This document shows, piece by piece, positions 22,160 to 47,838 of a stretch of DNA of 61,111 nt. The stretch is from Clostridia bacterium (lineage in GTDB: Bacteria; Bacillota; Clostridia; Oscillospirales; RGIG577): the NCBI GenBank assembly GCA_017513095.1, contig JAFWDJ010000010.1, positions 1 to 61,111 of the forward strand, given 5' to 3'. The translations under genes were made by a program, and so were the position numbers. Under the pieces are notes generated by a model, which made no database searches, was not told the origin of the DNA, and saw nothing but the letters and a program-made list of their open reading frames with translations. The first letter of the stretch is position 1. Each line of letters opens with the position of its first letter.

Positions 22160-22235
22160 GCTGTCTTAGCTCAGAAGGTAGAGCACATCCTTGGTAAGGA
22201 TGAGGTCGGCAGTTCGACTCTGCTAGACAGCTCCA
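22160..22235 (+). tRNA. tRNA-Thr (anticodon GGT)
   Basis: A complete cloverleaf is visible: acceptor GCTGTCT with AGACAGC, D-arm GCTC with GAGC, anticodon stem CATCC with GGATG around TTGGTAA, and T-arm GGCAG/TTCGACT/CTGCT (one G-U closing pair). The 3' CCA is encoded. Anticodon GGT reads ACC and ACU threonine codons. Confidence 0.97.
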
Positions 22236-22274: not shown

Positions 22275-22350
22275 GCTACCGTGGCTCAGCAGGTAGAGCA
22301 GCTCACTCGTAATGAGCAGGTCGTCCGTTCGAATCGGATCGGTAGCTCCA
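22275..22350 (+). tRNA. tRNA-Thr (anticodon CGT)
   Basis: The acceptor is GCTACCG with CGGTAGC, the D-arm GCTC with GAGC, and the anticodon stem GCTCA with TGAGC around CTCGTAA. The T-arm is GTCCG/TTCGAAT/CGGAT with one G-U. CCA is encoded. Anticodon CGT reads ACG. Confidence 0.97.
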
Positions 22351-29723: not shown

Positions 29724-31961
29724 ATGGACAAAACCGAAAAACTGAGCGGTACTGTAAGCGATATATTATATCAGAACGAGGAAAACGGCTACGTCGTGTG
29801 CGAGGTGGCCCTGCCCGACAGCGATATCGTCATGGTCGGAACCATGCCCTATCTCATGGTCGGCGAGGGTATAACAGCGGAGGGCGTATACGTAAATCAC
29901 GCCTCCTACGGAAAGCAGTTCCGCGTCATCTCGTGCGAACGCACGCTGCCTTCCACCGAAAAGGCGATGCGAAGCTTTCTTGCGTCGGGCGCGATAAAGG
30001 GCATCGGCGAGGTGCTGGCGGGACGCATCGTGGACGAGTTCGGCGAGGCCACGTTCGATATAATAGCCGACTCCCCCGTCTTGCTTGCGTCCATTCAGGG
30101 CATAACGAAGAAAAAGGCCGAGGAGATAGGCAAAATTTTCAACTACCGCATGGGCATAAAGCGCGTCATCGAGGAGTTTACGAAGCTGGGGCTTACGCCC
30201 GAGCAGGCCGTCGCGGCCTATTCCGTATACGGAAACGACGCGCCGATGCTCTTAAAGCAGAATCCCTACATCGTATGCCGCACGGGCATTGACGTGAGCT
30301 TTGAAACGGCGGACAGGATAGCGAAGGAGTTGGGCTTCGACCTTGGCGATACGCGTCGCGTTCGTGCGGCGATACTTCATATACTCGCCCACAATCTCCA
30401 AAACGGCCATACTTATATTCCGAAGCTCAAGCTTACGGCCGTCGCCGCAAATTTACTCGAGGGCTTTGAGGAGGACGAGATACTTGAGATAATCGAGGAT
30501 ATGTTCTCGGACGGCGAGGTCGTTATAACCGAATCCGAGCGTCACGACTGCGTATTTCTGCCGCGGCTTTACGAGGCGGAAAGCTTCGTTGCGGCGCGCG
30601 TGGCGCAGATGGCGAACGACGAAACGGATTACGGCGAGGACATCGACGCGCTCATCGACGAAACCGAAGCGGAAACGGGCATCGAATACGCCGTAATGCA
30701 GCGCGAGGCCGTAAAGCACGCCGCCGCGCGCCGCTTCATGGTGCTCACGGGCGGCCCCGGCACGGGCAAAACGACTACGGTGAACGCCATGATAGATATG
30801 TTCGAGGCACTCGGCAAAAAGGTGGCGCTCTGCGCGCCCACGGGACGCGCCGCACAGCGTATGACGCAGCTTTCGGGGCGCGAGGCGAAGACGATACACC
30901 GTTTACTCGAGGTAAAGCCGATGGAGGGCGGTCTTACGCCCGAATTTGCGCGCAACGAACGCCGCCCGCTCTCGGCCGACGTCGTAATCGCGGACGAATG
31001 CTCGATGATAGACATACTGCTCATGGAGGCGCTCATGCGCGCACTCAAAAGAGGGGCGCATCTCATACTCGTAGGCGACTACAATCAGCTTCCTTCGGTC
31101 GGCGCGGGCAACGTACTGCTTGATATAATCGAGTCCGAATGCGCCGACGTCGTAGAGCTCGACGAGATATTCCGCCAGGCGGCGCAGAGCAATATCATAG
31201 TATCGTCGCACGGCATATTAAACGGCGAATATCCCATACTCGACCGCAGGGAGGGCGACTTTTTCTTCCTCTACGTTGACGACGAGGAGCTCGGCGCGAA
31301 AAAGGCGGCCGATCTCATCGCGCGCCGCCTGCCGAAGGCCTACGGCTACGACCCGTTCACAGATATACAGATAATAACGCCCACAAAGCTCGGCGCTTTG
31401 GGCACAAAAGAATTAAACGCCCGCCTTCAGGAGCGGCTGAACCCCTCGTTTTCGATGCCGCATATAAAGCGGCGCGACGTCGTATTAAAGCTTGGCGACA
31501 AGGTTATGCAGACGAAGAACAATTATGACATTGAGTGGATAAAAAAGTCTGACGGCATAAGCTCCACGGGCGTTTTCAACGGCGATATAGGCCGCGTGGC
31601 GCAGATAGACGCGGCGCACGAAATTCTCGTCGTTGACTACGAAGATAAGCTGGCGACTTACCCGTTCTCGAGCATCGGCGAGCTTGAGCTCGCGTACGCG
31701 ATAACGGTGCACAAAAGCCAGGGCAGCGAATTCGACGCGGTCATCCTGCCGCTTTACCACTGCCCCGTCCGCCTTAGAAACCGCGAGATACTCTACACCG
31801 CGTTCACGCGCGCGAAGGAGCTTCTCGTCGTCGTGGGCGACTATGAAACGCTTACGCAGATGGTGGACAATCTGAAGCACTCGAAGCGCTATACGCTGCT
31901 TCGCGAGATGATACAGACGCTCGTCATGGAGAGCACCGACGACGACATGACATTATTTTAG
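29724..31961 (+). CDS. recD2: RecD2-type ATP-dependent DNA helicase
   Basis: The 745-residue superfamily 1B helicase moves 5' to 3' on single-stranded DNA and acts in repair without RecBC. An N-terminal OB-like region is followed by helix-hairpin-helix units (GAIKGIGEVLAGRIV, IQGITKKKAEEIG). Walker A is GGPGTGKTTTVNAM and motif II is IADECSMIDILL. DYNQLPSVGAGNVLLDII and the C-terminal AITVHKSQGSEFDAVILPLY follow. Length is usual for RecD2. CGGAGGAA precedes the ATG. Copy A of the repeat element begins two bases after its stop codon. Confidence 0.96.
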   Translation: MDKTEKLSGTVSDILYQNEENGYVVCEVALPDSDIVMVGTMPYLMVGEGITAEGVYVNHASYGKQFRVISCERTLPSTEKAMRSFLASGAIKGIGEVLAGRIVDEFGEATFDIIADSPVLLASIQGITKKKAEEIGKIFNYRMGIKRVIEEFTKLGLTPEQAVAAYSVYGNDAPMLLKQNPYIVCRTGIDVSFETADRIAKELGFDLGDTRRVRAAILHILAHNLQNGHTYIPKLKLTAVAANLLEGFEEDEILEIIEDMFSDGEVVITESERHDCVFLPRLYEAESFVAARVAQMANDETDYGEDIDALIDETEAETGIEYAVMQREAVKHAAARRFMVLTGGPGTGKTTTVNAMIDMFEALGKKVALCAPTGRAAQRMTQLSGREAKTIHRLLEVKPMEGGLTPEFARNERRPLSADVVIADECSMIDILLMEALMRALKRGAHLILVGDYNQLPSVGAGNVLLDIIESECADVVELDEIFRQAAQSNIIVSSHGILNGEYPILDRREGDFFFLYVDDEELGAKKAADLIARRLPKAYGYDPFTDIQIITPTKLGALGTKELNARLQERLNPSFSMPHIKRRDVVLKLGDKVMQTKNNYDIEWIKKSDGISSTGVFNGDIGRVAQIDAAHEILVVDYEDKLATYPFSSIGELELAYAITVHKSQGSEFDAVILPLYHCPVRLRNREILYTAFTRAKELLVVVGDYETLTQMVDNLKHSKRYTLLREMIQTLVMESTDDDMTLF

Positions 31962-31963
31962 CG

Positions 31964-32186
31964 GACGCCAAAAAAGGGCCAGACCGCCGAAAGGGATTAA
32001 ATAATAGATTAAAAAAACGCGTGCATGTTTTTTAATAATCAAAGCCCAATGCTCATCGTTTCAAAGCAGCTTTTGCGCCGTAACCTTCGGGTTACGGCGT
32101 TTTCGGCTATGTGTCGATTGCCTTCTCTACCGTATAACATACGCCGACGCTCGGCAATCGACAATTCTGACCTCTTTTTTGACGCC
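31964..32186 (+). repeat. Repeat element copy A (about 223 bp, structured)
   Basis: This stretch is the same family as 46801-47028 read on the minus strand. The ends are imperfect inverted repeats: GACGCCAAAAAAGGGCC at the left and GACCTCTTTTTTGACGCC at the right. Inside are a hairpin with a TTCG loop (CGCCGTAACC with GGTTACGGCG, 32076-32099) and a 10-bp outer stem, GTCGATTGCC (32113-32122) with GGCAATCGAC (32153-32162). A small inner hairpin is CGTAT/AAC/ATACG. No open frame of note is present. It fits a MITE-like element or a structured RNA. It begins 2 bases after the recD2 stop. Confidence 0.82.
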
Positions 32187-32204: not shown

Positions 32205-32237
32205 AAAGCGGCAGATGCAAAATGCATCTGCCGCTTT
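32205..32237. terminator. Bidirectional terminator between recD2/repeat and the flavoprotein gene
   Basis: A 14-bp perfect stem (AAAGCGGCAGATGC with GCATCTGCCGCTTT) with an AAAAT loop; the stem ends supply T tracts on both strands. Confidence 0.9.
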
Positions 32238-32248
32238 ATTTTATAAGT

Positions 32249-32725
32249 TTATGCTTCGTTTACGATTTTTCCCGTTATGTGCTCAGGTATAAGCTCAAAG
32301 CACAGCGTTGCCGCGCCGAATTTCTTTATCTCCTCTTCGATATATTCCGTATCCTTCGTAAATTTAAGGCTCAAATTCCGCGCCGCGTCCATCGCGCGCT
32401 CATAATCGTCGATGAATTTTACCCTGCCGAACACGATGACGCACTTTATATTGAGCGCCCACTCGCCCTCTTTTCTAAATCCCGAGTCGTAAACGCAGAA
32501 CGAGACCTTGTCGCATCTTTTCAGCGCGTCTATCTTATGCCCCTTCTTGCCCGAGTGAAAATAAAGCCGGCCGTCCTCCTCGCTGTACCAGTGATTTAAT
32601 GGCATCCCGTAAGGGTATCCGTCGTCGCCGATGACCGAAAGAACTCCGCGCGGCTCGGCCTTTAAGATTTCTATGCATTCTTCTTTTGTGAGTTTTTGTT
32701 TTATCCTCGAAACTTCTCTGAACAT
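32249..32725 (-). CDS. Pyridoxamine 5'-phosphate oxidase-family (split-barrel flavin-binding) protein
   Basis: The 158-residue protein has the split-barrel flavin-binding fold pattern of NimA-like proteins. It has ILKAEPRGVLSVIGDDGYPY, then MPLNHWYSEEDGRLYFHSGK and KGHKIDALKRCDKVSFCVYD. Relatives bind FMN or a haem-like cofactor and reduce small molecules such as nitroimidazoles. The exact substrate here is unknown. ATG 32725 follows TTGGAGGG; an ATG five codons earlier lies before that site. It is 64 bases after an RHH gene on the same strand and may share its transcript. Confidence 0.88.
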   Translation of the reverse strand: MFREVSRIKQKLTKEECIEILKAEPRGVLSVIGDDGYPYGMPLNHWYSEEDGRLYFHSGKKGHKIDALKRCDKVSFCVYDSGFRKEGEWALNIKCVIVFGRVKFIDDYERAMDAARNLSLKFTKDTEYIEEEIKKFGAATLCFELIPEHITGKIVNEA

Positions 32726-32789
32726 CCGGGCGCCCTCCAATTTCCGCTTTTTCTTAAATGATACACCGCGCGCCGCCGTTTGTCACGCT

Positions 32790-45848: not shown

Positions 45849-46730
45849 GTGACGCTTTTATTCTCACATCCCGCCGATACGGTGATAGCACGCCTAAAGA
45901 TGCTTGCCCCCGCTCCCGCTTTTGACGATCCACTTATCATAGTCGTCGAGCCGAACATTTCAGGCGGTCCCGGCGGCAGGCCGAAAGGCGATACGGCCAC
46001 GGTTTACGGCGTCGGTGAAGGAAACGCCGTAAACACGCAGACAGATATAGACATGACCGTCCCCGGCGACAAGATAATAGACGTAACGCTTCCGCAAAAC
46101 AGCGCCGCGACTTATATCCGCCTGACGGTAAGAGGCGCTTCTTCGGGCACGGTGGCCGCGATACTCAAAGACGACGGCTCGCGCGAGATAATAAAGGAGA
46201 CCGTTTTATGCGACGGCGTTACGCTTTCGTTCCCGCTTAAAGAGAGCGCGCGTGTGCAGATTATAAACAACGAAATAAGCTTCACCGACGTTCCCGCCGA
46301 CAGCCCGTTTTACGACGCCGTGACGTTCGTTTCGGCGCGCGGCATATTCAACGGCGTGGGCGCGGGCTTGTTTGCACCGCAGGCGCCGATGACGCGCGGA
46401 ATGCTCATGACGGTCCTCGCGCGCTGCGACGGCGTTGACGCATACGGCGCCGACTGGCTTTTAAAGGGCGTGTCGTGGAGCGCGAAACTTGGCGTATTTG
46501 ACGGCGCGGACACGAACGCTGCGCTCACGAGAGAGCAGTTCATCATGCTTCTTTGGCTTTATGCAGGCTCCCCCTCATCCGAGGGCAGCGTTTCGGGTGA
46601 CGCCGCGGTATCGTGGGCAGAGGAAAACGGCATATTAAGCGGACTTGACGGCGGCGCGGCTCTTGTCGAGCCCGTAACGCGCGGACAGGCCGCGCAGATT
46701 ATCATGAATTATTACATGGCAAAGCATTAA
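45849..46730 (+). CDS. SLH-repeat part downstream of the in-frame TGA
   Basis: This frame is in phase with the lipase-like gene, ten codons after its TGA. It encodes a linker and beta domain at about 1-140. Three SLH repeats follow (FTDVPADSPFYDAVTFVSAR, then VSWSAKLGVFDGA, then AVSWAEENGILSG). GTG 45849 has only a weak AAGAG site, and the product has no signal peptide. Made alone it could not be exported, so it is more likely the 3' half of the same gene than a second gene. A terminator follows the stop. The SLH head-to-tail arrangement equals that of the protease and transglutaminase genes. Confidence 0.72.
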   Translation: MTLLFSHPADTVIARLKMLAPAPAFDDPLIIVVEPNISGGPGGRPKGDTATVYGVGEGNAVNTQTDIDMTVPGDKIIDVTLPQNSAATYIRLTVRGASSGTVAAILKDDGSREIIKETVLCDGVTLSFPLKESARVQIINNEISFTDVPADSPFYDAVTFVSARGIFNGVGAGLFAPQAPMTRGMLMTVLARCDGVDAYGADWLLKGVSWSAKLGVFDGADTNAALTREQFIMLLWLYAGSPSSEGSVSGDAAVSWAEENGILSGLDGGAALVEPVTRGQAAQIIMNYYMAKH

Positions 46731-46750: not shown

Positions 46751-46786
46751 AAAAGCTCCTCCGACAAAACGGTCGGGGGAGCTTTT
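46751..46786 (+). terminator. Terminator after the SLH fragment
   Basis: A 15-bp nearly perfect stem (AAAAGCTCCTCCGAC with GTCGGGGGAGCTTTT) with a 6-base loop and trailing Ts. Confidence 0.92.
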
Positions 46787-46800
46787 TGCGTCGTTGACAG

Positions 46801-47028
46801 GGCGTCAAAAAAGAGGTCGGAATTGACGATTGGCGAGCGTCGCCGTATTAAATACGGCAGAGAAGACAATCGTCGTATAGCCGCAAACGCCTCAACCCCG
46901 CGGGGTTGAGGCGAAAAAGCTACAGAGGGGCGACGTGCATAAGAATTTTCATTCGTAAACTTCATGAACACGGCTTCTCTTCTATTATTTTATCTTTTTC
47001 GGCGGTCCGGCCCTTTTTTGACGTCCCC
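46801..47028 (-). repeat. Repeat element copy B (about 228 bp, structured)
   Basis: Read on the minus strand this copy matches 31964-32186. The ends are GACGTCAAAAAAGGGCCGGA and, at the other side, GACCTCTTTTTTGACGCC. The internal hairpin is CGCCTCAACC with GGTTGAGGCG, differing from copy A at two pairs that both remain paired. The outer stem GACGATTG pairs with CAATCGTC. The small hairpin GCCGTAT/TTA/ATACGGC is longer than in copy A. The middle (about 45-100 in the element) has diverged. It starts 4 bases after the yunB stop codon, in the same orientation as yunB, just as copy A does after recD2. Confidence 0.82.
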
Positions 47029-47031
47029 GGC

Positions 47032-47751
47032 TCAGTGCATCTGATAATCGTTTATTATGCCTATCGTATCGCTTTTATCGCCTATAACGTATGTAAATCC
47101 GCTGGGCACGTCTCCTACTATCACCGTTTCGGCCGCGGTAATGCGCGAGCTTACGCGCGTTTTTACAAGCCTTCGCGGCAGTATCACGCTCACGTCGACA
47201 GAAACGTCAAGACAAATGCGGTGGCGCACCTGATTTATGCCGGCCGCGCGGAAATCGTTTGTAATATCCACGTTTACAAGGCTTACGGGCAAAAGCCTTA
47301 CGGGAATCTTCGGCCCGCGGTCTATCATCATCTCGTTTCCGAGTACCGTGCCGAGCCTTATACTGATATCCGAAGGCGAAATTTCGTTTACGGCGCGAAG
47401 TACGCTCTCCGACACGGCGGATTTTAATCTGTTTATCCTCACGGTATCGACCTGCATTGCGCTTATCTTTTTGTTTTCATCGTATGAAAACGTCACGAGG
47501 TCGTCGTAGCGTATATCCTCGCTTGAAAGCGTCTCCGATATCGCGCCGAACACGGCCTCGGAGCAGACGTAGTTTATCCGCGATACGGCCGCCGCTTCCA
47601 CTATCGGGGCAAAGCGTTTCTCGGCCGCGAGCATAAGCGCGACAACAAGAGCGCACGCCATCAAAAAAACGACGAGCCTATATACGGCGTCGCCGCGCCG
47701 CATGCCCGCATTTTTCGCTTTGCGTCGTTTTTTAAAGCCAGCGCGTCTCAC
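47032..47751 (-). CDS. yunB: Sporulation protein YunB
   Basis: The 239-residue protein has a basic N-terminus, then one membrane segment (VYRLVVFLMACALVVALML). The YunB domain has ISRINYVCSEAVFGAISE-type sequence and MQVDTVRINRLKSAVSESVL. It ends with LGTVLGNEMMIDRGPKIPVR and IPV-rich strands. YunB is made under sigma-E in the mother cell and is needed for efficient sporulation. GTG 47751 is chosen because GGGGGTG lies 6 bases upstream; GTG 47760 and a start further upstream are alternatives. It is divergent from the methyltransferase gene. The repeat copy follows its stop. Confidence 0.88.
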   Translation of the reverse strand: MRRAGFKKRRKAKNAGMRRGDAVYRLVVFLMACALVVALMLAAEKRFAPIVEAAAVSRINYVCSEAVFGAISETLSSEDIRYDDLVTFSYDENKKISAMQVDTVRINRLKSAVSESVLRAVNEISPSDISIRLGTVLGNEMMIDRGPKIPVRLLPVSLVNVDITNDFRAAGINQVRHRICLDVSVDVSVILPRRLVKTRVSSRITAAETVIVGDVPSGFTYVIGDKSDTIGIINDYQMH

Positions 47752-47838
47752 CCGTGTCACCCCCGATATATAATACTTATGTAAAAAACGCGCCAAACGT
47801 GATATAATTCTAAAAAAAGCAATCCGGGGATGATAAAA

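What the first reader, a model, noticed from the sequence alone, without database searches (positions are those of the whole stretch)
31964..32186. Two diverged copies of a structured 225-bp element with compensatory changes
Copy A (31964-32186, plus) and copy B (46801-47028, minus) share both ends and most of the right half, with a diverged middle. In the hairpin CGCCGTAACC/GGTTACGGCG of A, B has CGCCTCAACC/GGTTGAGGCG, so two adjacent pairs changed on both arms and stay paired. The outer stem changes T-A to A-T likewise (GTCGATTG/CAATCGAC versus GACGATTG/CAATCGTC). This suggests selection on RNA or cruciform structure rather than simple repeats. I know of no named family that it fits.
Basis: partly seen in the sequence, partly recalled or inferred. 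Interest (0 to 1): 0.8.

Follow-up and report, generated by a model that had tools for sequence, protein, structure and literature searches.

The report
Folded mobile repeat that invades terminators
The two copies are members of a small, strongly folded, gene-less transposable element (an IS1182-type MITE) that is scattered in many gut Clostridia, lands on the terminator hairpins at gene ends, usually duplicating the whole hairpin, and keeps a tiny hairpin tip almost unchanged while its stems change in matched pairs.

Summary
Copies A and B belong to a family with about 25 copies in this genome, found in 40 of 394 genomes of the order and 25 of 341 of the class. There is no Rfam match. The fold is a three-way junction: outer stem P1 made by the terminal repeats, P2 over variable hairpins, and P3 ending in the near-invariant tip CTCTRCCGTAY-n(3-5)-RTACGCCGACG. 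Covariation is strong: on 35 P3 hairpins not used to define the structure the score is 0.634 against 0.167 shuffled. It is not a free-standing RNA gene but a non-autonomous transposon. Among 118 copies with both flanks, 73 show exact direct duplications of at least 15 nt (0.16 expected), nearly all whole terminator hairpins. IS1182-family insertion sequences of the same order have the same ends (CAGnCTGTCrAAAAA) and the same hairpin duplications. In a sister species the A and B sites hold ordinary terminators and no element. A and B themselves have lost any duplication. IS1182-family targeting of hairpins is known, so this is a new variant of a known kind. Unexplained: why the P3 tip is conserved, also in elements with other terminal repeats. 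Mismatch asymmetry suggests that the reverse-complement strand is the one that folds.

The parts
31964..32186 (+). Copy A of the element, between the stop codon of a recD2-like helicase gene (29724-31961 +) and the convergent PNPOx-family gene (32249-32740 -)
31969..31983 (+). A: 5' arm of P1, at the left terminal repeat (CAAAAAAGGGCCAGA)
31986..31992 (+). A: 5' arm of P2 (GCCGAAA)
32076..32099 (+). A: hairpin CGCCGTAACC-TTCG-GGTTACGGCG, followed by TTTT (terminator-like on the + strand)
32101..32107 (+). A: 3' arm of P2 (TTTCGGC)
32112..32163 (+). A: P3 hairpin, stem arms 32112-32122 and 32153-32163
   Evidence: model R1 hit 32110-32165
32125..32149 (+). A: near-invariant P3 tip CTCTACCGTAT-AAC-ATACGCCGACG
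32166..32181 (+). A: 3' arm of P1 (TCTGACCTCTTTTTTG)
32205..32237 (.). Terminator hairpin of the convergent gene, right of A; also present at the orthologous place in a sister species (G002), so ancestral and not a target duplication
46801..47028 (-). Copy B of the element, between the ends of a yunB gene (47032-47796 -) and an SLH-domain gene (45849-46730 +)
46838..46862 (-). B: P3 tip CTCTGCCGTAT-TTA-ATACGGCGACG
   Evidence: model R1 hit 46822-46877
46751..46787 (.). Terminator-like hairpin right of B (AAAAGCTCC...GGAGCTTTT)
   Evidence: read directly

Best explanation
A and B are old copies of a gene-less, strongly folded transposable element: a MITE moved in trans by an IS1182-family DDE transposase. 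The transposase recognises the ends CAGnnTGTCrAAAAA. It selects targets by structure, namely the extruded stem-loop of an intrinsic terminator at a gene end. It joins the element at the 5' feet of the stem-loop on both strands, so that gap repair copies the whole hairpin to both sides. In old copies, as in this genome, one or both hairpin copies and the right-end hairpin are lost. Inside, P1 (from the ends), P2 and P3 form a three-way junction, and many families also carry a terminator-like hairpin that may make the insertion harmless. Shown: multicopy spread, ends, hairpin duplications, autonomous IS with the same ends and duplications, terminators at the empty sites of a sister species, covariation. 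Inferred: action of the transposase in trans, the strand-transfer geometry (a model published for IS1272), the harmless-insertion role. Not explained: the task of the conserved P3 tip.
For: About 25 copies in the own genome and up to 29 in others; many copies stop at contig ends, as dispersed repeats do. Of 118 copies with both flanks, 73 have exact direct repeats of at least 15 nt against 0.155 when flanks are paired across copies; nearly all are palindromic hairpins of 16-34 nt that differ from site to site. The end motif is strongly enriched in host genomes and absent from G002, which lacks the element. IS1182-family insertion sequences of the order (NCBIfam NF033551, 400 and 363 bits) have the same ends and 20-39 nt palindromic duplications in 13 copies; one lies in G394, which carries 29 copies of the element. 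Sister species G001 has an ordinary terminator and no element at both orthologous places. IS1272 and TnSha1, of the same family, insert into terminator hairpins (PMC4923244, PMC5678879).
Against: A and B have no clear hairpin duplication; 9 of 22 copies in this genome keep a hairpin directly on the left and only L004 keeps both copies. The only IS1182-family transposase found in this genome has different ends (GGGGCTGTGAAAAAA), so the enzyme that moved A and B is not identified here. Presence of such a transposase and of the element do not go together across genomes (6 of 40 element genomes, 53 of 394 overall). IS1272 is reported to delete part of the hairpin rather than duplicate it.
Confidence: 0.87

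Rival explanations
1. The interior is a functional non-coding RNA or single-stranded DNA structure, on the strand opposite to A's + strand, with a protein- or ligand-binding P3 tip; transposition only spreads it.
For: Tip nearly invariant while every P3 stem pair shows double changes. Same tip and layout in elements with other terminal repeats (GGGGCTGnCnCATTTAG in G181 and G235; GGGCGTGCG... in G401). Mismatches inside helices are A.C rather than G.T on the + strand: 24 against 3 over 21 stem clusters (p = 5e-5), and 33 against 4 in Watson-Crick-only folds of 35 genomes, as expected if the reverse complement is the folding strand.
Against: No convincing promoter for it at A or B. No Rfam match. 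Within families A.C and G.T are about equal (38 and 30), as for decaying repeats. Copy number and presence vary freely and G002 of the same genus has none.
Confidence: 0.35
2. Paired changes arise without selection, because DNA hairpin arms correct each other by template switching during replication, so a mobile palindrome stays palindromic.
For: Palindromic DNA with arms that change together; few wobble intermediates within helices; inverted arm variants in L016 and L022 fit such events.
Against: Does not explain the conserved unpaired tip bases, nor the strand asymmetry of mismatches.
Confidence: 0.4
3. A host-owned terminator or extragenic palindrome (REP/BOX-like) that serves as bidirectional terminator at gene ends.
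For: Lies at gene ends: convergent to divergent gene pairs 34 to 7. Interior terminator-like hairpin on the + strand in 19 of 35 genomes and on the - strand in 12, against 0.7 in shuffles.
Against: Target duplications, terminal repeats and patchy occurrence show invasion; a sister species uses ordinary terminators at the same places.
Confidence: 0.06

Closest known systems
IS1272 and TnSha1 (IS1182 family, staphylococci; PMC4923244, PMC5678879)
   Same: DDE transposase family; targets are hairpins of unrelated sequence, mostly terminators; both orientations occur
   Different: IS1272/TnSha1 replace or partly delete the hairpin and leave no duplication; here the whole hairpin is duplicated. IS1272 encodes its transposase; this element has no gene
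Bacterial MITEs in general (review PMC10969869), including RUP and SPRITE of pneumococcus
   Same: Short, gene-less, terminal inverted repeats, intergenic, folded transcripts predicted; SPRITE resembles a terminator
   Different: The passages read do not describe interiors with a near-invariant tip and covarying stems across a class; the target duplications given there are short (7-9 bp in QMITE2)
HEARO/IsrB-type RNAs and IS110 bridge RNAs (from memory; not tested as homologues beyond Rfam)
   Same: Structured non-coding sequence tied to a transposable element
   Different: No Rfam match; no guide loops or partner gene seen; hairpin target duplications do not fit IS110

Membership tests
IS1182-family MITE | Terminal inverted repeats shared with an autonomous IS1182-family element | tested here: met
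   CAGnnTGTCrAAAAA at the element's ends and at IS1182-family ends of the same order; in G000 the ends are decayed
IS1182-family MITE | No transposase gene; small size | tested here: met
   about 215-310 bp; no ORF of at least 80 aa lies wholly within A or B
IS1182-family MITE | Insertion into palindromes or terminator hairpins | tested here: met
   73 of 118 copies with duplications of at least 15 nt, nearly all hairpins; sister-species empty sites are terminators
IS1182-family MITE | Hairpin duplication at copies A and B themselves | tested here: not met
   no duplication at B; the 13 nt at A lie in the end repeat; both are assumed to be old copies
IS1182-family MITE | Matching transposase in the same genome | tested here: inconclusive
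   G000 has an IS1182-family IS with other ends; its NCBIfam score is 269.4 against a cut-off of 270
IS1182-family MITE | Transposition driven in trans by the IS1182 transposase | not testable with these tools
   needs a mobility assay
Rfam structured RNA family | Score above the gathering cut-off of any of 4227 families | tested here: not met
   window and 20 related loci, no match other than two tRNAs; weak matches only

The most novel reading that the evidence does not exclude
The P3 hairpin is a conserved functional nucleic-acid module, probably acting on the strand opposite to A's + strand as RNA or single-stranded DNA, that has been carried through the class Clostridia by several unrelated terminal-repeat types of gene-less transposons; its tip binds a conserved partner of the host or the transposase.
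Probability: 0.33. Interest if true: 0.82.

Novelty: new variant of a known kind. Interest (0 to 1): 0.62.

Why it matters
It gives natural-insertion evidence, over many independent sites, that an IS1182-type transposition selects targets by hairpin structure and can duplicate the whole hairpin, a pathway proposed only as a model alternative for IS1272. It also shows a gene-less transposon family, class-wide in Clostridia, with a covarying fold and a near-invariant tip of unknown use, which is a ready object for mobility and binding tests. The elements lie at many gene ends and may affect transcript 3' ends and termination there.

Tried and rejected
Rfam at gathering and at permissive thresholds: no match. 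IS200/605 or REP-type hairpin element: rejected, because ends and duplications are of DDE type. Group IIC intron (also lands at terminators, from memory): rejected because such introns leave no target duplication and no intron family matched in Rfam. Site-specific recombination core in P3: unlikely, since the loop varies from 3 to 5 nt and the closing pairs covary. P3 inside the autonomous IS: not found in 25 IS loci. Strong orientation bias: a first crude ORF call gave the left gene in sense in 70 of 87 and 36 '++' against 8 '--'; stricter calls give 31 against 13 (p = 0.01), and 16 against 9 (p = 0.23) for copies with duplications, so I treat it as weak. Association of element and transposase across genomes: none.

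Full report
What was claimed and whether it is there. Copies A and B are real and at the stated places. A BLAST of A against the own genome gives 37 pieces in about 25 places. Six pieces are in one sister species (G001) and none in another (G002). A and B fold with z -5.9 and -5.0.

Anatomy. In A's orientation the unit is: left end repeat; P1 5' arm; P2 5' arm (GCCGAAA); a fast-changing hairpin region; a GC-rich hairpin (CGCCGTAACC/GGTTACGGCG here, other sequences elsewhere); P2 3' arm (TTTCGGC); P3, whose tip is CTCTACCGTAT-n-ATACGCCGACG; P1 3' arm; and in complete copies a right-end hairpin made of two facing end repeats, CAGCGTGTCGAAA..TTTCGACACGCTG. Several copies in this genome carry an additional CCCCAAAAAA hairpin inside P3; in L016 and L022 it lies on the other side, with the arm inverted.

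Covariation. On 15 full copies of the genus, using A's own fold, 94.4% of cells pair; 10 pairs have changes on both sides against 2.7 in shuffles, and slid versions reach at most 2. On 26 P3 hairpins the score is 0.411 against 0.119. On 35 further hairpins, none used to define the structure, it is 0.634 against 0.167, with all 15 P3 stem pairs and 3 of 5 tip pairs changed on both sides somewhere. The tip keeps its unpaired bases nearly fixed.

Spread. The pattern of the tip hits mainly gut Oscillospiraceae and other Clostridia in a species-level genome collection, and two viral-collection contigs. A covariance model of P3 finds 40 of 394 genomes of the order (25 of 168 genera) and 25 of 341 of the class (20 of 203 genera), with up to 29 matches in a genome.

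It is a mobile element. In 118 copies with both flanks, 73 show an exact direct repeat of at least 15 nt between left and right flank, against 0.155 on average when flanks are paired across copies. The repeats are nearly all hairpins of the terminator kind and differ from copy to copy; a few are not, and come from tandem or neighbouring repeats such as those at L009, L033 and L158. The end motif is enriched in host genomes. G403 has a second gene-less element with the same ends and duplications but no P3. IS1182-family insertion sequences of the order carry the same ends and hairpin duplications of 20-39 nt at 13 copies, and transposases of two of these elements match the NCBIfam IS1182 model well above its cut-off. 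In G394 one such element lies in a genome rich in the gene-less one. In G001 the places of A and B hold ordinary terminators after the same genes.

Known background. TnSha1/IS1272, an IS1182-family element, inserts into terminator hairpins with partial deletion (PMC4923244). IS1272 replaces stem-loops, and a model pathway with joining at the 5' feet would duplicate the whole stem-loop (PMC5678879). The present data show that duplicated outcome in nature. I found no paper describing this element, but the paper library is only partly complete.

Which strand folds. Mismatches within helices are A.C far more often than G.T on A's + strand: 24 against 3 over 21 stem clusters, and 33 against 4 in Watson-Crick-only folds from 35 genomes. 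On the reverse complement these are G.U or G.T pairs. tRNA acceptor stems from the same loci give 7 G.U and 0 A.C, a small control. Within families the two kinds are nearly equal, as for decaying copies. I take this as suggestive of a folding strand opposite to A's + strand, as RNA or single-stranded DNA. The main caveat is that a few positions supply many of the counts.

Placement. Gene pairs around the copies are convergent 34 times and divergent 7 times. The element tends to run in the sense of the gene on its left, but only weakly under strict gene calls. The interior carries terminator-like hairpins on the + strand in 19 of 35 genomes and on the other strand in 12, against 0.7 in shuffles. 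A plausible reading is that the element brings a replacement terminator, which keeps insertions into terminators harmless. This is inference.

Verdict. A new IS1182-type MITE family with hairpin-duplicating, terminator-targeted insertion and a conserved, covarying interior. The interior's role, and whether selection or template switching keeps its arms paired, are open.

Noticed in passing
L016, L022 (G000:C35, G000:C42) versus L005, L015, L017-L020: P3 arm with an extra CCCCAAAAAA...TTTTTTGGGG hairpin, inverted in two copies, as if the arm had flipped or the insertion had occurred on the other side.
   Followed up: partly
L197, L198 (G403): A second, P3-less gene-less element of about 185 bp with the same ends and hairpin duplications; its interior contains a TGTCATTGCGAGCC...GGCAATCC repeat.
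   Followed up: partly
L246, L259, L260 (G181, G235): The same P3 tip and layout inside elements with ends GGGGCTGnCnCATTTAG; the matching autonomous element was not identified.
   Followed up: partly
L058, L141-L144 (G401, Candidatus Coliplasma caballi): P3 tip inside elements with ends GGGCGTGCG...TTAGGGA.
   Followed up: no
L009 (G000:C45:8748-9102): Element neighboured by a separate repeat unit (GCCGGTCCGGGACGTGCCGG...).
   Followed up: no
L216 (G000:C42, about 147 kb): Own-genome IS1182-family element with ends GGGGCTGTGAAAAAA and a right-end palindromic hairpin of similar design to the MITE's right end.
   Followed up: partly
L061, L062 (IMG/VR contigs): Two nearly identical copies of the element on contigs classed as viral.
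   Followed up: no
L046 (G399): A shrunken copy that is one long palindrome around the P3 tip, P2 domain lost.
   Followed up: no
window 22160-22232 and 22275-22347: Two adjacent tRNA genes, the only Rfam matches in the window.
   Followed up: no
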